A program made the translations under genes and the position numbers. Source: a virus. From it: a stretch of DNA of 63,320 nucleotides. The notes beneath the pieces were generated by a model that saw nothing but the letters and a program-made list of their open reading frames with translations, had not been told where the DNA came from and ran no database searches. Of the stretch, positions 23,140 through 48,278 are shown piece after piece (the first letter of the stretch is position 1; the number at the start of each line of letters is the position of its first letter). The stretch covers positions 1 through 63,320 of the IMG/VR virus record IMGVR_UViG_3300033153_011833; one strand, given 5' to 3'.

Positions 23140-23168
23140 TTGGCATTGTACGATGAATAGTATATACT
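23140..23168 (+). promoter_or_regulatory. Sigma70-type promoter for the rightward operon
   Basis: TTGGCA (23140..23145), a 17-base spacer and TATACT (23163..23168) form a good housekeeping promoter. Transcription would begin near 23175 and run into a 55-codon first gene whose ribosome site AAGGAG precedes its ATG. It is the clearest promoter in the window and probably drives early expression. Confidence 0.75.
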
Positions 23169-23224: not shown

Positions 23225-23392
23225 ATGACAACAAAAGAAATCAAACAGGCAAAAAAAATCATCGAAACCAAAAGACCAGCAGAAGGATATAGTACAATAC
23301 TATACAGTGATGGCAATATAGGACTCGAATGCCGTTACACTGACATCACCAAAATCTTTTGGACCCTCGCAGATGTACTCCAATGGGTATAA
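23225..23392 (+). CDS. Small early protein, unknown (55 aa)
   Basis: The first gene after the strong promoter. AAGGAG stands nine bases before the ATG. The protein reads MTTKEIKQAKKIIETKRPAE and ends in TKIFWTLADVLQWV: an N-terminal basic helix, a short beta hairpin, then a hydrophobic end. No family is recognised. First genes of phage early operons often encode host takeover peptides, so this is a candidate; that is inference only. Confidence 0.6.
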   Translation: MTTKEIKQAKKIIETKRPAEGYSTILYSDGNIGLECRYTDITKIFWTLADVLQWV

Positions 23393-23423
23393 TATTTTAA
23401 CTTTTATTAAGGAGCAACGTAAA

Positions 23424-23765
23424 ATGGAAAACTACACAAAAGAAACAATACTGAAGATGACTAAACAGGAATTACATGAGGCAAGAAGAGAATTATTAAA
23501 AGGTGAAATCAATGATAATTGCTCGAACTGCTCATACTGCTCACGCTGCTCATACTGCTCATACTGCTCATACTGTTCGGACTGCTCATACTGCTCACAC
23601 TGCTCAGATTGTTCATACTGCTCAAACTGCTCGGACTGCTTAGAATGCTCAGACTGCTCAGACTGCTCGCACTCAGTTGGGCTTAAAAAGGGGCGATATT
23701 TGATTTGCAACGTGCAGTTAACAGAAGAAGAATACCAAACTAAAATTAAAGAATTGAATTTATAA
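23424..23765 (+). CDS. CSX tripeptide-repeat protein 1 (113 aa)
   Basis: The start ATG 23424 is preferred because AAGGAG lies nine bases before it. The N-terminus (MENYTKETILKMTKQELHEARREL) is helical. Residues about 36-88 are 17 consecutive tripeptides of the form X-Cys-Ser, where X is mostly Tyr, Asp, His or Asn; one unit ends in Leu. The C-terminus (SVGLKKGRYLICNVQLTEEEY...) is shared with a longer paralog at 47775..48278. Cys at every third residue could bind metal ions or form disulfides in a thin regular helix. I do not know this family. The DNA repeat is 9 bp and also leaves antisense frames open. Confidence 0.8.
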   Translation: MENYTKETILKMTKQELHEARRELLKGEINDNCSNCSYCSRCSYCSYCSYCSDCSYCSHCSDCSYCSNCSDCLECSDCSDCSHSVGLKKGRYLICNVQLTEEEYQTKIKELNL

Positions 23766-24743: not shown

Positions 24744-25730
24744 ATGTCACCAAAAGAATTGAAAAAAGCATTATTAAAAACAACAGCAGCTGGTTTACCT
24801 GTCTTAATCAAAGGTGCACCTGGAATTGGAAAGAGCGATATTGTATCCCAAGTGGCCGAGGAGTTGGATATGGATTTAATCATAAGCCACCCAGTCGTAT
24901 CAGACCCAACGGACTTCAAGGGTTTGCCTGGAATAGTAAATGGCAAAGCCGAATTCCTACCTTTTGGAGATTTGCGAAAACTGATTGATGCTAAAAAAGC
25001 AACCATTGCTTTTTTAGATGACTTAGGACAAGCACCTGCGGTAGTCCAAGCAGCCTGTATGCAATTGATTCTGGCACGTCGAGTTAATGGCCACAAAATC
25101 AGCGATAAAATTGTATTTGTCGCAGCCACTAACAGAAGACAAGATAGAGCGGGGGTTACAGGTATTTTGGAACCGGTCAAAAGTAGATTTGCCACAATAC
25201 TAGAATTAACAACAAATGCCGACGATTGGATTGAATGGGCCTTCCAAAACGACGTACCGACGGAAGTTATAGGATTCATTCATTTTCGCCCCGCTCTGCT
25301 TAATACTGAAGAGACCACAGCCGATATTGTAAACCATCCCTGCCCAAGAACAATGGCAGCCGTAGGTGAATTGATTAAAGCAGGTCTAACTGATATCGAA
25401 ACGATAGCAGGAGCGGTAGGTGAAGGATGTGCAGCAGAACTCACAGGCTTCCTAAAAATTTATAAAGACCTACCAAGCATCGAAGCCATATTATTAGACC
25501 CAGAAGATGTTGTTGTCCCCACCGACCCAGCATCAGTATATGCAATAGTAGCAGCATTGACCGAAAAAGCCACAGAAAATAATGCTGACCGCATATTCAA
25601 GTATGCAAACAGGTTACCAATTGATTTTAATATATTGTTGGTACGGGACATGCTTCGCAAAGAACCTAAAATCCAAAATACAAGAAGTTTCATAAATTGG
25701 GCATCCAAACATCAAGATGCCTTACTGTAA
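24744..25730 (+). CDS. MoxR-type AAA+ ATPase
   Basis: The 328-residue AAA+ protein has Walker A GAPGIGKSD (about residues 24-32), a Walker B with DDLGQ (TIAFLDDLGQ, about 90-99), sensor 1 VFVAATNR (about 127-134) and an arginine-finger region (EPVKSRFATI). The C-terminal part is helical with an acidic insert. MoxR ATPases assemble or activate metal-protein or multiprotein complexes together with VWA proteins. The preceding DUF3150-like gene and the following metalloprotein-VWA gene make a complete trio. The biological target in phages is not known. Confidence 0.85.
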   Translation: MSPKELKKALLKTTAAGLPVLIKGAPGIGKSDIVSQVAEELDMDLIISHPVVSDPTDFKGLPGIVNGKAEFLPFGDLRKLIDAKKATIAFLDDLGQAPAVVQAACMQLILARRVNGHKISDKIVFVAATNRRQDRAGVTGILEPVKSRFATILELTTNADDWIEWAFQNDVPTEVIGFIHFRPALLNTEETTADIVNHPCPRTMAAVGELIKAGLTDIETIAGAVGEGCAAELTGFLKIYKDLPSIEAILLDPEDVVVPTDPASVYAIVAALTEKATENNADRIFKYANRLPIDFNILLVRDMLRKEPKIQNTRSFINWASKHQDALL

Positions 25731-25741
25731 AGGAGATTGCA

Positions 25742-26851
25742 ATGAATGCTGTAGATAAAATTTTAAGAGCCCGTTCGATACTCATTTTAGACCATCCTTT
25801 CTTCGGCAGCTTGGCACTTCGTTTGGATTTGGTCGAAGACAACTCGTTTGAAACGATGGCAACCGACGGACAAACACTGCAATATAACTCTAAATATGTT
25901 GACAAATTATCCATTAAGGAAATGTTGGGTGTGTTAGCCCACGAGGTTATGCATTCGGCATTGGGTCATATTTGGAGACAAGGTAATCGAGACCATCAAA
26001 AATGGAATATAGCAGCAGATTATGCCATCAACCATAGCTTGATTACCACAGGTTTTACCTTGCCTGATGGAGTATTAGTAAATAATGAATATGCAGATTT
26101 ATCTGCTGAAGAAATTTACAGTTTGCTGGAAGACCAAAATCAAGGCCAAAGCCAAAATCAAAATTCCTCAAATAAATCCGACCCTGGTAAATGCGGAGCA
26201 GTCCTACCCGCAGAAAATAAACAACAAGAAAAAGAAATAAAAGCGAAATGGCAAGCAGCAGTAAACCAAGCTGTCCAAATAAGCAAAGGCAGTTTGCCCG
26301 ACAACGTTAAAAGACAAATTCAAAAATTTCTAAATCCTGAAGTGCCCTGGCATATTTTGCTTAGGGATTTTGTAGAACATAATGCCAGGAATGATTATAA
26401 TTGGGCAAAGCCATCAAGAAGATATCTATATCGAGATTTGGTGCTGCCAAGTTTAATCAGTGAATCTCTCCCTAAAATAATCATTGCAATAGACACGTCG
26501 GGCAGTATTAACAATAAAGCATTGACAAAGTTTGCTACCGAAGCTTCCAATGTTTTAGAAAGCTACGACACCACTATCGAAGTGATATATTGTGATGCCA
26601 AAATCCAAAAGAAAGAAGTGTTTACGAGAACAGATATGCCACTGAAAATGAATCCCAAAGGCGGGGGAGGTACAGATTTCCGACCTGTATTTGACCATAT
26701 TGAAAAATATGAAGAGCCACCGTCGTGTTTGATTTATTTCACTGATATGTACGGTCAATTTCCAAATCAAACCCCCCCATATCCTACTATGTGGTTAGCT
26801 ACAGAAAAAAATAGAAAAGCACCGTTCGGCATAACCGTCAATTTCAAGTAA
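25742..26851 (+). CDS. DUF2201-like putative metallopeptidase with VWA-like domain
   Basis: The start ATG 25742 follows AAGGAG; an upstream in-frame ATG lies inside the ATPase gene. The 369 residues combine a zinc-type HEVMH (residues about 67-71) with a C-terminal VWA-like domain that has the MIDAS signature DTSGS (IIIAIDTSGSINNK) and a late YFTDMYG. In between is a Gln/Asn-rich linker. This is the two-domain architecture of DUF2201 proteins paired with MoxR ATPases. The HExxH could bind zinc; peptidase activity is not established. Confidence 0.8.
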   Translation: MNAVDKILRARSILILDHPFFGSLALRLDLVEDNSFETMATDGQTLQYNSKYVDKLSIKEMLGVLAHEVMHSALGHIWRQGNRDHQKWNIAADYAINHSLITTGFTLPDGVLVNNEYADLSAEEIYSLLEDQNQGQSQNQNSSNKSDPGKCGAVLPAENKQQEKEIKAKWQAAVNQAVQISKGSLPDNVKRQIQKFLNPEVPWHILLRDFVEHNARNDYNWAKPSRRYLYRDLVLPSLISESLPKIIIAIDTSGSINNKALTKFATEASNVLESYDTTIEVIYCDAKIQKKEVFTRTDMPLKMNPKGGGGTDFRPVFDHIEKYEEPPSCLIYFTDMYGQFPNQTPPYPTMWLATEKNRKAPFGITVNFK

Positions 26852-30996: not shown

Positions 30997-31698
30997 ATGA
31001 AAAATGAAAAGTCTTATTATGCCGTTATACCTGCTCCTGTCAGATATTGTCAAAACCTGTCTCCAAATGCAAAATTACTATATGGCGAAATAACAGCACT
31101 ATGTAATAAGGAAGGATATTGCTGGGCGTCCAATAATTATTTCGCCAAATTGTATGGTGTTCATACTATAACAATCAGTAGATGGATTAAGAATTTGGAG
31201 GATAATCATTTTATAATTTGTAAAATGAAAAATAAGAATAAAAGAAGAATTTATATTCATGAACCCTTAGCAAAAATGCTAAGGGGGTTTAGCAAAAATG
31301 CTAAGGGGGTTAAGCAAAAATGCTTAGGGTATAATAATAATATAACTAATAAAACAAATATATCTGTTAAAATGATTGATAAAAGATTTGCCATGAAATT
31401 ATTTAAGTTAGTACGGGCTAAAAGAAAAATAAATATCAATCATCAAAAATGGTCCTGTCATTTTGCAAAATTAAGGGTCAAATCTGGAATAAAAAAACAA
31501 AGAATTGCCAAGGTATTAAATTGGTATGAAAATCATATTGGAGAAAGATTTGTGCCTGTATCATATTCAGCCGGAAGTTTTTGCAGTAAATTTCTTAGAA
31601 TAGAAGATGCCATGAACCGATACATTGAAAATATCGAATCTGGCGAAGCTCCTCTTGTGTATAAAAAACGTATTGTAAAACATACGATTGTCGATTAA
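30997..31698 (+). CDS. Replication initiator-like protein with iterons in its gene
   Basis: The 233-residue protein has an N-terminal winged-helix/HTH (LSPNAKLLYGEITALCNKEGYCWASNNYFAKLYGVHTITISRWIKNLEDNHFI) of the type found in phage and plasmid replication initiators. The middle (residues about 90-110) is LAKMLRGFSKNAKGVKQKCLG, translated from three iterons in the DNA. The C-terminal half is basic and helical. The DnaB-like helicase follows, so this gene is the likely origin-binding protein, like lambda O. Confidence 0.78.
   Translation: MKNEKSYYAVIPAPVRYCQNLSPNAKLLYGEITALCNKEGYCWASNNYFAKLYGVHTITISRWIKNLEDNHFIICKMKNKNKRRIYIHEPLAKMLRGFSKNAKGVKQKCLGYNNNITNKTNISVKMIDKRFAMKLFKLVRAKRKININHQKWSCHFAKLRVKSGIKKQRIAKVLNWYENHIGERFVPVSYSAGSFCSKFLRIEDAMNRYIENIESGEAPLVYKKRIVKHTIVD
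31267..31329 (+). repeat. Three 22-bp iterons (candidate replication origin)
   Basis: Three copies of a 22-bp unit, core AGCAAAAATGCT, lie at 31269..31280, 31291..31302 and 31313..31324, an exact 22-base spacing. Each has an internal dyad: TTAGCA/TGCTAA in the first two and TAAGCA/TGCTTA in the third. They sit inside the initiator gene and are followed at once by an AT-rich stretch (31330..31385), just as in lambda ori. Confidence 0.85.
31330..31385. other. AT-rich stretch beside the iterons (candidate unwinding element)
   Basis: This stretch is almost all A and T (TATAATAATAATATAACTAA and onward) and lies immediately right of the three iterons. In iteron-type origins the AT-rich element is melted by the bound initiator. 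It is coding as well. Role inferred from arrangement. Confidence 0.6.
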
Positions 31699-36658: not shown

Positions 36659-37672
36659 ATGAAGATAAATAGAGAAAAACTTTTAGGTCAACTGGAATCT
36701 ATTCTACCAGGTTTATCCACAAGAGAAATAATAGAACAATCATCCTGTTTTGTTTTTCAGAACAAAGTGGTGATGACTTATAATGATGAGGTGGCCTGCA
36801 CCCAAGAATCATGCCTCCCTGTTACAGGAGCCATACCAGCTACGCCCCTTATATCCATTCTTCGCAAATTGAAGGAAGAAGAATTGGAAATAACAATCGA
36901 TAAAAAAGAATTGTTGATTAAAGGTAATCGAAAAAAAGCAGGCATCAGAATGGACGCTGATATTTTACTTCCAATCAATTTGGTGGAAAAACCTAAAAAA
37001 TGGAAAGACCTGCCCGACGATTTTGCAAATGCTATAACTATTGTCAAACAGTGTGCAGGAAAAGATGAAACCAAGTTTTCACTGACCTGTGTACGACTCA
37101 CGCCCAAATGGATAGAAGCTTGTGATGGTTACCAAGCAGCCAGATATACAATAAAAATGGAAGTAGAAAAACCCACTCTTGTAAGAAAAGAATCTATAAA
37201 ATACATAGAAGAATTGGGCGTGTCAGAATTTAGTGAAACAAAGAATTGGATTCATTTTAGAAATTCTTCCGGACTTATTTTGAGTTGTCGTCGATGGGTT
37301 GAGGATTTTCCAAAATTATCAAAGCTATTACAAATCACAGGAACCCCCACCAAGTTTCCAAAAGGATTAACAGAAGCAGTAGAAAAAGCCGAGATTTTCT
37401 CAGCAGAAAATGTAGAAGATAACCAAATAGAAATAAACATCAAACCCAACAAGCTTCAAATTATTGGTAGAGGCGTTTCTGGATATTATCAAGAAATAAA
37501 GGACATAAAATACAAAGGAAAGCCTTTGTCATTTAGAGTTGCTGCCTGCCTATTTGCCAACTTAATCCGTCACCACAACACCTGTGAAGTAACCAAAGAT
37601 AGATTAAAAATAGCCGTTGGGAAATACACCTACGTTACTGTTCTTCAAGCAATTATCCCAGGAGAAAAATAA
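36659..37672 (+). CDS. Sliding clamp-like (DnaN/beta-type) protein
   Basis: The ATG at 36659 follows AAGGAAAAG. The 337 residues show the three-domain repeated beta-alpha pattern of bacterial beta clamps (about 110 residues each): LLISILRKLKEEELEITIDKKELLIKG in domain one, AITIVKQCAGKDETKFSLTCVRLTPK in domain two, and IEINIKPNKLQIIGRGVSGYYQEIKDI in domain three, ending VTVLQAIIPG. Sequence is diverged, so the call rests on repeated pattern and on the UDG-polymerase and clamp-loader genes nearby. It would tether the polymerase. Confidence 0.7.
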   Translation: MKINREKLLGQLESILPGLSTREIIEQSSCFVFQNKVVMTYNDEVACTQESCLPVTGAIPATPLISILRKLKEEELEITIDKKELLIKGNRKKAGIRMDADILLPINLVEKPKKWKDLPDDFANAITIVKQCAGKDETKFSLTCVRLTPKWIEACDGYQAARYTIKMEVEKPTLVRKESIKYIEELGVSEFSETKNWIHFRNSSGLILSCRRWVEDFPKLSKLLQITGTPTKFPKGLTEAVEKAEIFSAENVEDNQIEINIKPNKLQIIGRGVSGYYQEIKDIKYKGKPLSFRVAACLFANLIRHHNTCEVTKDRLKIAVGKYTYVTVLQAIIPGEK

Positions 37673-38871
37673 TGAAAAAGGGGTTCTTCTCATCATCCAG
37701 TTTTCAAACCAAGGAAAAGATTCTCACAACCACTCGATGCGGTTTATGTGGACGTTATAAAAATTGTAAATCCCCTAAAATGCCCCCTACAGGCAAAGGC
37801 AGAAAAAAGATATTATTTATAGCTGAAGCTCCGGGTGCAGAAGAAGATAGGAAAAATATGCAGTTGGTTGGTCCATCCGGTCAATTTCTAAGGAAACACC
37901 TAAAAAAAATGGAGGTTGATTTGGATAAGGATTGTTGGAAAACAAATGCCGTTATATGCTTTAAGAAAAATAACGAAACTCCTAATAAAAAGGTAATAGA
38001 AGCTTGTCGGCCAAATCTAATGAGAACGATAAAACAGTATCAACCAAATGTAATTGTGCTCCTTGGTAAAATAGCAATAAGTTCTTTGATATCTGCTTTG
38101 TGGAAAACAGATGAAGGAGTTGTAAACAAATGGGCGGGATACTCTATACCTTGTCAAAGTTTGAATGCTTGGATTATTTGTACCTACCATCCTGCTTATT
38201 TACTAAGAAAAAATGATAAGGTCCTAAATAGATTTTTTGAAAATCATTTAAGGACTGCCCTACATAAATCTAAATCCAAACCTTGGAAAAAAATTCCTAA
38301 TTATAACAATCAAATTGATATTATAATGAACCCATTGCAAGCTGTAAAAGAAATTGAGAAAATAAAAGATGGTCCAATTGCTTTTGATTATGAAACTAAT
38401 TGTTTGAAACCTGAAGGAAAAGGCACCAAATTGGTTTCTTGTTCGATATGCTGGAAAGGGAAAAAGACAATAGCTTTTCCAATGGAAAAAGGAGTTGTTA
38501 CAGCGGTAAGCCGGTTGCTAAAATCGCCTATTCCTAAAATAGCAAGTAATATGAAGTTTGAAGATAGATGGACAAGAACGAAACTGGGACACCCTGTTAG
38601 AAATTGGTTGTGGGACACAATGATAGCCGCTCATGTTATAGACAACTCTCCTGGTGTAACAAGTATTAAATTTCAATCTTTTGTTTTTCTAGGAGTAGAA
38701 TCTTATAATGACGTTGTCAAACCTTTTTTTGAATCAGGCAAAGACAGATTCAATCGAATACACGAAATAGATTTGAATGATTTGTTATTATACAACGGAT
38801 TGGATAGTCTATTGGAATATAAGGTGGCAATGAAACAAATGCATGTTATGAAAGGATTAAAAAATGAGTAA
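37672..38871 (+). CDS. Uracil-DNA glycosylase fused to 3'-5' exonuclease
   Basis: The 399-residue protein is a fusion. Residues about 20-200 are a family 4-type uracil-DNA glycosylase: a CxxC start (C23, C26, C32) of iron-sulphur type, IAEAPGAEED (50-58), VGPSGQFLRK, and CTYHPAYLLRK (170-180). Residues about 225-395 are a DnaQ-like exonuclease: FDYETN (ExoI, 238-243), ASNMKFEDRW (ExoII) and YNGLDSLLEYK (ExoIII). It corresponds to the N-terminus of phage UDG-PolA fusions, but here the polymerase is a separate gene at 40013 after three other genes. It would proofread and remove uracil at the fork. Confidence 0.88.
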   Translation: MKKGFFSSSSFQTKEKILTTTRCGLCGRYKNCKSPKMPPTGKGRKKILFIAEAPGAEEDRKNMQLVGPSGQFLRKHLKKMEVDLDKDCWKTNAVICFKKNNETPNKKVIEACRPNLMRTIKQYQPNVIVLLGKIAISSLISALWKTDEGVVNKWAGYSIPCQSLNAWIICTYHPAYLLRKNDKVLNRFFENHLRTALHKSKSKPWKKIPNYNNQIDIIMNPLQAVKEIEKIKDGPIAFDYETNCLKPEGKGTKLVSCSICWKGKKTIAFPMEKGVVTAVSRLLKSPIPKIASNMKFEDRWTRTKLGHPVRNWLWDTMIAAHVIDNSPGVTSIKFQSFVFLGVESYNDVVKPFFESGKDRFNRIHEIDLNDLLLYNGLDSLLEYKVAMKQMHVMKGLKNE

Positions 38872-45173: not shown

Positions 45174-45344
45174 ATGAAAACAAATCTGATAATTATTTTG
45201 ATATGTATCTGTGGATTTCCTTTTCTTATTTATGCTTGCGGAATTTTTATTTATATATGCGTCAAATTTGGAACGGTTGCTTATTACAAAGCAAAAGAAT
45301 TTATTGAAAAAGAAAAGAAGAATAGTTTTTATGAAGGAGACTGA
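45174..45344 (+). CDS. Small membrane protein (56 aa)
   Basis: The 56 residues begin with a hydrophobic segment (NLIIILICICGFPFLIYACGIFIYICV) that could cross the membrane once or twice, followed by a Lys/Glu-rich tail. Its stop lies one base before the SSB start. It may be a holin-like or host-membrane effector; no family is known. Confidence 0.6.
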   Translation: MKTNLIIILICICGFPFLIYACGIFIYICVKFGTVAYYKAKEFIEKEKKNSFYEGD

Positions 45345-45345
45345 A

Positions 45346-46524
45346 ATGTCAAAAAGAAACAAGAGGAAGGAAAGAAAGAAGCGAAAGACAATTAACACCG
45401 CTCGGAGAAGGGCGGAGCAACATGGAACTGGGTTTGAAAGAACCACGTTGGCTTTGCCAGAAGGGGCCAGTCTTTTTAAGTTGAAGAATGATAAGACTGT
45501 GCGGCTTGATATCATTCCGTATGTCGTGGGAAAGGGCAACCCTTGGGCAGATGAAGGGGAACTCCATTATGAAAGAACTTATTTTGTTCACCGGGGAATA
45601 GGAGCGGAACAAAATTCGTATTCTTGTCTCCGAAAAACATTAAAAAAGAAATGTCCTGTTTGTGAATATCGAGCAAAATTGATGAATAGTCCAGACCCAG
45701 ATGAAGACCTTATTAGAAGCTTAGCTCCGAAAGAACGACAACTTTTTAATGTTATAGATACCAGTGATAGGGAAAAGGGCATTCAAATATGGGATATTGC
45801 TTGGTGGTTGTTTGGGAAAGCATTAGATGCCAAAATTCGCAATGCTGATGAAGATGATGATTATGATACTTTTGATTCGATAGATAACGGATATACATTA
45901 AAGTTAGGTATCGAAGAGAATCATTTTGAAGGACGTGCTTTCTATAGCATAACAGACATTGATTTCAAACATAGGAAAGAAAATTATGATGAAAGTATTC
46001 TAGATGAAGCCTATGTTTTGGATGACATTATCAAAATCACTCCTTATGATGAATTGAAGAAGATACTACTTCAAAATGAAGATGACGAGGACAATGATGA
46101 TGCAGCCATTAAACCAAAATCCAAAAAGTCAATGAACAAAAAGAAGCATAAGAAAGATGAAGAAGAATTTGACGAGGATTTTGAAGACGAAGAACTATTT
46201 GACGAAGACGAAAACGACGATGAACAAGAAGAGGAATTTGACGAAGACTTCGAGGACGAGGACGACGAGGACGGTGAAGAATTCGATGAGGATGAAGACG
46301 ATATAGAATTTGACGAAGATTTTGAAGATGAAGACGATGAAGAGCAAGACGATTTCGACGAAGACTTTGAAGACGACGAGGGGCAAGAAGAAGATTTCGA
46401 TGAGGATTTTGAAGACGAACAAGAAGAAGACAAACCGAAAAAGAAAAAGAAAGCTAGCAGAAAGAAAAAGAAAACTAGTAAAAAGAAAAAGAAAACCAGT
46501 AAAAAGAAAAAGTCAAGAAAGTAA
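45346..46524 (+). CDS. Single-stranded DNA-binding protein with long acidic and Lys-rich tail
   Basis: The ATG at 45346 follows GAAGGAGA. Residues about 1-225 form a gp32-like OB-fold protein with a Cys-type metal site (SCLRKTLKKKCPVCEYRAKL) and the strand RLDIIPYVVG. After about residue 245 comes an acidic low-complexity tail with repeated EEFDEDFEDE units, and then a Lys-rich end with repeated KKKKT-S. The acidic tail of SSBs is usually short; here it is over a hundred residues and is followed by a basic stretch. SSB coats and protects DNA at the fork and recruits the recombinase next door. Confidence 0.83.
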   Translation: MSKRNKRKERKKRKTINTARRRAEQHGTGFERTTLALPEGASLFKLKNDKTVRLDIIPYVVGKGNPWADEGELHYERTYFVHRGIGAEQNSYSCLRKTLKKKCPVCEYRAKLMNSPDPDEDLIRSLAPKERQLFNVIDTSDREKGIQIWDIAWWLFGKALDAKIRNADEDDDYDTFDSIDNGYTLKLGIEENHFEGRAFYSITDIDFKHRKENYDESILDEAYVLDDIIKITPYDELKKILLQNEDDEDNDDAAIKPKSKKSMNKKKHKKDEEEFDEDFEDEELFDEDENDDEQEEEFDEDFEDEDDEDGEEFDEDEDDIEFDEDFEDEDDEEQDDFDEDFEDDEGQEEDFDEDFEDEQEEDKPKKKKKASRKKKKTSKKKKKTSKKKKSRK

Positions 46525-47774: not shown

Positions 47775-48278
47775 ATGAAAAAATACACGAAAGAAGCAAT
47801 ACTAAAGATGACTAATCGGGAATTACATAAAGTAAGAGGAATGTTATTAAAAGGTAGAGCCAATGCTGACTGCTCACACTGCTCATACTGCTCATACTGC
47901 TTGAATTGTTCACACTGTTCAGAATGCTTGGGCTGCTCGGATTGCTCAGATTGCTTGGACTGCTCGGATTGCTTGGGCTGCTCATATTGCTCAGATTGCT
48001 TGGACTGCTCGAATTGCTCAGATTGCTCACACTGCTCAGATTGTTCAAACTGCTCATACTGCTCACACTGCTCAGATTGTTCATACTGCTCATACTGCTC
48101 ACACTGCTCAGATTGTTCATACTGCTCATACTGTTCGGACTGTTTGGACTGTTTGGATTGCTCAAACTCAGTTGGGCTTAAAAAGAGGCAATATATGATT
48201 TGCAACGTGCAGTTAACAAAAGAAGAATATGAAACTAAAATTAAAGAATTGAGTTTAGAAGCGATAAACAATGAATAA
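47775..48278 (+). CDS. CSX tripeptide-repeat protein 2 (167 aa)
   Basis: This longer paralog of 23424..23765 has the same helical start (MKKYTKEAILKMTNRELHKVRGML), then 33 X-Cys-Ser (or X-Cys-Leu) tripeptides over residues about 36-134, and the same end (SVGLKKRQYMICNVQLTKEEYETKIKEL). The ends are much alike, but repeat number nearly doubles, so the repeat tract expands and shrinks. X is mostly Asp, Tyr, His or Asn. Cys density would allow a long metal- or disulfide-rich rod. It lies downstream of the recombinase. Confidence 0.8.
   Translation: MKKYTKEAILKMTNRELHKVRGMLLKGRANADCSHCSYCSYCLNCSHCSECLGCSDCSDCLDCSDCLGCSYCSDCLDCSNCSDCSHCSDCSNCSYCSHCSDCSYCSYCSHCSDCSYCSYCSDCLDCLDCSNSVGLKKRQYMICNVQLTKEEYETKIKELSLEAINNE

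What the first reader, a model, noticed from the sequence alone, without database searches (positions are those of the whole stretch)
23424..23765. CSX tripeptide-repeat protein: 17 cysteines in register
A tract of X-Cys-Ser with X chosen mainly from Tyr, Asp, His and Asn, flanked by conserved helical ends, is not a fold I know. Cys at every third residue would line one face of an extended three-residue helix and could form a metal-thiolate wire or a disulfide rod. It is the second gene after the strong early promoter, so it may act early against the host.
Basis: partly seen in the sequence, partly recalled or inferred. Interest (0 to 1): 0.85.

Follow-up and report, generated by a model that had tools for sequence, protein, structure and literature searches.

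The report
Phage protein with cysteine-cored beta-helix repeats
This phage gene makes a small protein in which every third amino acid is cysteine 17 times in a row; it belongs to a large undescribed family found in many viruses, and its relatives in bacteria with very small genomes indicate that the cysteines line the inside of a narrow coiled protein rod, like the antifreeze protein of mealworm beetles.

Summary
Window 23424-23765 (+) encodes a 113-residue protein with 17 consecutive Cys-(Ser/Leu)-X tripeptides (residues 33-83) between conserved ends. A longer paralogue with 33 tripeptides lies at 47775-48278. It is not an orphan. IMG/VR holds at least 100 relatives with C-x-x tracts of about 9 to 56 units joined to several different end domains, and one is in a cultured Campylobacter coli phage. 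The C-terminal cap (GLxxxxYxIxNVQLTxEEY) is shared with Cys-rich proteins present in dozens of copies per Patescibacteria genome. Those relatives keep the period-3 register but mix Cys with Ser, Leu, Ala and Ile. Their sequence autocorrelation peaks at 12 residues, and AlphaFold2 models the closest one as a beta-solenoid with 12-residue coils (pLDDT about 72-75). The best reading is therefore a right-handed beta-helix of the beetle-antifreeze (1EZG) kind, four tripeptides per coil, with every inward position Cys. This is homology plus one medium-confidence model; the window's own tract was not predicted confidently (pLDDT 31-45). Whether the core is thiol, disulfide or metal-bound is untested. 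Function is inferred only: an accessory, length-variable binding rod used in phage-host interaction.

The parts
23140..23168 (+). sigma-70-like promoter site TTGGCA-17-TATACT ahead of the rightward operon
   Evidence: consensus match only
23225..23392 (+). first gene of the operon, 55 aa, no family match
23409..23414 (+). ribosome-binding site AAGGAG of the Cys-tripeptide gene
   Evidence: sequence
23424..23765 (+). Cys-tripeptide protein P1, 113 aa
23424..23519 (+). N-terminal cap: two predicted helices (residues 6-26), motif TKExILKMTxxEL
   Evidence: AlphaFold2 pLDDT about 76; conserved in relatives
23520..23672 (+). tract of 17 Cys-Ser/Leu-X tripeptides; inferred beta-solenoid of about 4.25 twelve-residue coils
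   Evidence: TRF period 9 and 27
23673..23762 (+). C-terminal cap SVGLKKGRYLICNVQLTEEEYQTKIKELNL (strand-strand-helix), shared with Patescibacteria solenoid proteins
47775..48278 (+). paralogue P2, 167 aa, 33 tripeptides, same caps, between a RecA-like gene and a 5'-3' exonuclease gene
47871..48167 (+). tract of 33 tripeptides in P2; best tandem period 36 bp (= 12 residues)

Best explanation
P1 and P2 are small beta-solenoid proteins. Each Cys-Ser-X tripeptide is one short side of a narrow right-handed coil; four tripeptides (12 residues) make one turn, with Cys pointing inward at every side and Ser-X pointing outward, as in beetle antifreeze protein but with Cys at all four inward positions. 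An N-terminal pair of helices and a C-terminal strand-strand-helix cap close the ends. P1 would have about 4 coils and P2 about 8. Shown here: the repeat, the paralogue, the family, homology of the C-cap to Patescibacteria solenoid proteins, and 12-residue periodicity in those relatives. Inferred: that the window's tract takes the same fold. Inferred more weakly: that the rod is a length-variable binding scaffold whose exposed faces (Tyr, Asp, His, Asn, Arg) contact a host or phage molecule, as an accessory phage-host interaction protein (about 30% for that role). The state of the core (free thiol ladder, disulfides, or bound metal) is open.
For: The C-cap GLxxxxYxIxNxQ[LY]TxEEY is shared with Patescibacteria proteins: BLASTP of P1 against one of them gives E 7e-8 with separate matches at both of its caps, and the alignment shows the same spacing. 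A profile of phage members finds 65 and 26 places in two Patescibacteria genomes, against 3 places, all on one phage-like contig, in a 2.4-Mb Phycisphaerae genome. In 11 Patescibacteria/Micrarchaeota solenoid segments, residue similarity peaks at every multiple of 3 and is highest at lag 12 (-0.07 against about -0.4 at other multiples of 3); the register positions are Cys, Ser, Leu, Ala, Ile. AlphaFold2 of L144:3440-4285, which has near-pure C-x-x units and the window's cap, gives solenoid pLDDT 72-75 with the strand pattern repeating every 12 residues over seven rows, then a helix. In cap phase, window row SDC LEC SDC SDC matches model row YFC ADC SGC SNC. Foldseek matches are mostly right-handed beta-helices, including 1EZG (weak, E 0.76, highest probability of those listed, 0.35). 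In the beetle protein the inward residues are 2, 5, 8 and 11 of a 12-residue coil, the same period 3 (PMC8038014). In phage tracts, lag 4 in tripeptides is the strongest similarity (z 3.97, 0 of 500 shuffles), and in P2 the top tandem period is 36 bp. The last in-register residues before the cap turn hydrophobic (S-L-G-L, S-L-A-V, A-L-A), as expected for an inward column.
Against: AlphaFold2 on the window protein itself left the tract undetermined (pLDDT 31-45). The L144 model is only medium confidence (mean 53) and shares just the register and the cap with the window. Foldseek against PDB has no match at E below 0.001. The lag-4 signal in phage tracts falls to z 1.75 once runs of duplicated units are discounted. 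Unit counts are not multiples of four (mod 4 spread 3/4/4/4). Aromatic X residues show no phase relative to the cap (p 0.20). No functional partner is conserved beside the gene.
Confidence: 0.62

Rival explanations
1. Metal-thiolate protein: the Cys tract binds Zn, Cu(I) or Fe-S clusters, either wrapped round clusters like a metallothionein or as a string of metal ions inside the solenoid; it buffers metal or redox in the infected cell.
For: 17 to 33 Cys in a small protein with no signal peptide (sequence), so probably in a reducing cytosol. Cys is kept at 99.6% of 3329 register positions while position 2 varies. In P1 and P2 together the Cys codon changes only synonymously (40 TGC, 10 TGT, no other) while Ser changes to Leu 8 times in 50. 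Four inward Cys per coil could ring a metal.
Against: The tracts were found by searching for Cys, so the 99.6% is inflated. Patescibacteria relatives with the same cap put Ser, Leu, Ala or Ile in the same positions, so the fold does not need a full set of thiols. No metal-handling gene lies beside it.
Confidence: 0.25
2. Disulfide-bonded rod: the inward Cys pair across each coil as in beetle antifreeze protein, giving a hyper-rigid secreted or virion-attached rod.
For: Beetle protein of the same coil length closes its core by C2-C8 disulfides (PMC8038014). Some relatives lie after structural genes.
Against: No signal peptide in P1 or P2 (sequence); both lie among early and replication genes; the bacterial cytosol is reducing.
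Confidence: 0.12
3. Extended three-residue helix (3-10 or polyproline-II) with a Cys stripe on one face.
For: Strict period 3.
Against: Register neighbours in relatives behave as a buried core with 12-residue periodicity; no Pro or Gly as in polyproline-II bundles or collagen.
Confidence: 0.05
4. Substrate of a peptide-modifying enzyme, like the His-Xaa-Ser repeat proteins or a Cys/Ser-modified RiPP precursor.
For: NCBIfam HxsA4 matches below its cut-off (24.6 of 55 bits).
Against: No radical SAM gene in the window, while the same search rings in 14 of 14 control genomes; no recurring modifying enzyme seen next to relatives.
Confidence: 0.03
5. A DNA minisatellite with no protein function, kept by slippage.
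For: 9-bp tandem array; tract length differs (19 against 35 units) between two phages with 100% identical 400-bp flanks.
Against: Both ends are conserved as protein across phyla; length differences keep the register; Cys codons vary only synonymously; RBS and operon position.
Confidence: 0.03

Closest known systems
PHROG 15341 (phage family of unknown function)
   Same: C-x-x tripeptide tract; P1 E 2.4e-7, P2 E 7.4e-12
   Different: Its model carries another N-terminal domain (W..D.NxNxW type); no structure or function is given; the window's caps are not part of it
Cys-rich solenoid proteins of Patescibacteria (a viral model with the same fold bears the name 'Caib/baif family protein')
   Same: Same C-cap motif and spacing, same period-3 register; viral model H6SUK4 matches the L144 fold
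   Different: About 550-600 aa, two solenoids, treble-clef zinc ends, mixed Cys/Ser/Leu/Ala core; the phage protein is one bare solenoid with all-Cys core
Beetle antifreeze protein TmAFP (1EZG)
   Same: 12-residue right-handed coil with every third residue inward (PMC8038014); weak Foldseek and profile matches
   Different: Only 2 of 4 inward positions are Cys; T-C-T ice face; secreted; no caps of this kind; no evidence of common descent
XLL17427.1, Campylobacter phage CC_R7
   Same: C-x-x tripeptide protein in a cultured phage
   Different: Other N-cap; position 2 is often Glu/Ile/Lys rather than Ser; ends without the window's C-cap
Pentapeptide-repeat proteins
   Same: Small phage/bacterial beta-solenoids without enzymes
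   Different: Five-residue sides, A(D/N)Lxx motif, absent here

Membership tests
Beetle-type (TmAFP) beta-helix | Inward residue every third position | tested here: met
   17 of 17 and 33 of 33 Cys in register; relatives keep a core-like register. That the position points inward is inferred from the L144 model.
Beetle-type (TmAFP) beta-helix | 12-residue coil | tested here: inconclusive
   Met in the relatives; in phage tracts lag 4 is strongest but weakens after discounting duplications; window tract not modelled
Beetle-type (TmAFP) beta-helix | T-C-T ice-binding face | tested here: not met
   No Thr in the tract
Beetle-type (TmAFP) beta-helix | C2-C8 disulfides | not testable with these tools
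   needs protein
Patescibacteria Cys-rich solenoid family | C-cap motif CxxCxxxxxLxxxxYxxxNVQLTxEEY | tested here: met
Patescibacteria Cys-rich solenoid family | Treble-clef zinc ends and second solenoid | tested here: not met
   P1 is 113 aa with neither; Pfam finds none
PHROG 15341 | Profile match over the tripeptide tract | tested here: met
   E 2.4e-7 and 7.4e-12
PHROG 15341 | N-terminal W..D.NxN domain | tested here: not met
   match starts at profile position 35-38
His-Xaa-Ser (HxsA4) repeat protein | Score above NCBIfam cut-off and radical SAM partners | tested here: not met
   24.6 of 55 bits; no radical SAM
Metallothionein-like metal protein | Stoichiometric thiolate-bound metal | not testable with these tools
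   needs purified protein
Collagen-like tripeptide repeat | Gly at every third residue | tested here: not met
   no Gly in the P1 tract

The most novel reading that the evidence does not exclude
The all-Cys core holds a line of metal ions or Fe-S units along the axis of a narrow beta-helix, one ring of four thiolates per coil: a genetically encoded, length-adjustable metal wire used by phages.
Probability: 0.1. Interest if true: 0.92.

Novelty: new variant of a known kind. Interest (0 to 1): 0.6.

Why it matters
An apparently undescribed family of phage proteins (unknown function in PHROGs, absent from Pfam, no paper found) is tied to a fold and to a family that is amplified to dozens of copies in reduced Patescibacteria genomes. 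A beta-helix whose whole core is cysteine has no solved example that I know of. It would test how such a core is stabilised in a reducing cell (thiol ladder, disulfide or metal). The minisatellite nature gives a natural series of rods from about 9 to over 50 units for such tests.

Tried and rejected
tblastn against phages and plasmids with P1, P2 or the C-cap gave nothing, probably because the low-complexity filter removes the tract. Papers on Cys tripeptide repeats in phages: none relevant. The Csep1P paper turned up by a word search is an alpha-solenoid and unrelated. Annotation as 'caspase recruitment domain protein' was a memory lead with no support. Whole-coil quantisation of tract length: not seen. 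Phase-specific aromatic X residues: not significant. Many C-x-x hits of the pattern scan are wrong-frame readings of other repeats (collagen-like G-P-x, poly-trinucleotide) and were set aside by composition and by eye. Antisense ORFs over both tracts (E-Q-Y/S repeats) are a by-product of the codons and were not followed further. Radical SAM partner: absent.

Full report
What is there. The window is a 63,320-base virus record. At 23424-23765 (+) an ORF of 113 codons with a good ribosome-binding site encodes MENYTKETILKMTKQELHEARRELLKGEINDN-(C-S/L-X)17-SVGLKKGRYLICNVQLTEEEYQTKIKELNL. Cys is encoded by TGC or TGT 17 times in register; position 2 is Ser except one Leu; X is Tyr, Asp, Asn, His, Arg or Glu, most of them NAY codons. 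The gene is the second of a rightward operon that starts behind TTGGCA-17-TATACT, divergent from the terminase genes.

It is a family. The same window has a longer paralogue at 47775-48278 with 33 tripeptides and both ends conserved, between a RecA-like gene and a 5'-3' exonuclease gene. About 130 distinct tracts of 8 to 56 units were read. Third positions are Asp, Gly, Arg, Asn, Tyr, Ser and His in over 90% of units, residues tolerated at turns; second positions are mostly Ser but vary widely. The tract is joined to at least four kinds of N-terminal domain and several C-terminal ones. The window's kind, with ends like its own, is found in L001, L143, L148, L149, L151-L153, L157, L159, L203 and L213. 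L143 is a phage-like contig binned with a Phycisphaerae genome. A cultured Campylobacter coli phage, CC_R7, has a C-x-x protein annotated as hypothetical. Tract length changes fast: L004 and L006 have identical 400-base flanks and 19 against 35 units. Cys codons of P1 and P2 vary only synonymously, Ser codons also to Leu.

Link to a fold. A genome scan with the type-A alignment, driven by the C-cap pattern, found Patescibacteria and Micrarchaeota proteins. Their Cys-rich segments end in motifs such as CFGCVNLRNKSYCWENVQLTKEEYF, aligned without gaps to the window's cap. One Patescibacteria genome has 65 matching places and another 26. In these proteins the register continues in threes for about 100 residues, but the register residue is Cys, Ser, Leu, Ala or Ile, as in a buried core. 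Their self-similarity is highest at a lag of 12. AlphaFold2 on the bridging protein L144:3440-4285 gives a solenoid with strand signs repeating every 12 residues (pLDDT 72-75) followed by a helix at the cap. Foldseek lists mostly right-handed beta-helices in PDB, none significant, with the beetle antifreeze protein 1EZG the most probable of those shown. Among viral models it finds a 'Caib/baif family protein' of a Campylobacter phage and other proteins at probability 1.0. In the beetle protein the coil is 12 residues and side chains point in at 2, 5, 8 and 11 (PMC8038014), the same period. Laid in cap phase, the window's last full coil SDC LEC SDC SDC matches the model's YFC ADC SGC SNC.

Limits. 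The window's own tract was not resolved (pLDDT 31-45). In phage tracts the lag of four tripeptides is the strongest (z 3.97) but falls to 1.75 once duplicated neighbours are discounted. Tract lengths are not whole coils and X residues show no clear phase. So the 12-residue coil is well supported for the relatives and inferred for the phage protein. The Cys conservation figure is inflated because tracts were found by Cys.

How it may work. I take it as a rigid rod built on a Cys core, with exposed Ser-X faces free to vary and length free to change, used as a binding scaffold in phage-host contact. The placement in the window (early operon, replication region) fits this. Elsewhere the gene lies beside small-terminase, capsid or tail genes, which marks an accessory gene rather than a fixed early function. 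L151 carries next to its full-length gene a copy with both ends and no tract (L151:4662-4913), so the ends can be kept without the rod. Whether the thiols are free, paired or metal-bound cannot be told from sequence.

Novelty. The repeat is known to PHROGs as a family without function and absent from Pfam; no paper found describes it in the library searched. The fold kind is known; an all-Cys core and the bridge from phage tripeptide proteins to the Patescibacteria family are new to my knowledge. I rate it a new variant of a known kind.

Noticed in passing
L151:4662-4913 (+): A gene next to the full-length Cys-tripeptide gene that keeps N-cap and C-cap but has no tract at all.
   Followed up: partly
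L144, L147 (genomes G002, G003): Cys-rich two-solenoid proteins with zinc-finger ends in very many copies per small Patescibacteria genome (65 and 26 matching places); no known function.
   Followed up: partly
L150:4306-4728 (+): Gene right after the Cys-tripeptide gene encodes a pentapeptide-like repeat (NINARNIDAVDINAEDI), another likely solenoid.
   Followed up: no
L001:524-694, L149:3418-3576, L150:3714-3896: Small proteins of one kind (RIxxxDYxxLRRxxPxxKxET) next to the Cys-tripeptide gene in three phages.
   Followed up: no
window 31267-31329: Three nearly perfect 22-bp repeats, each holding the near-palindrome TTAGCAAAAATGCTAA, inside a helix-turn-helix gene (30997-31698).
   Followed up: no
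window 37672-38871: One ORF with a uracil-DNA glycosylase domain followed by a 3'-5' exonuclease domain.
   Followed up: no
window 24744-26851: AAA ATPase (PHROG 1297) and DUF2201 metallopeptidase/VWA pair downstream in the same operon.
   Followed up: no
window 45211-46524: Protein with a long acidic repeat followed by a poly-lysine repeat tail.
   Followed up: no
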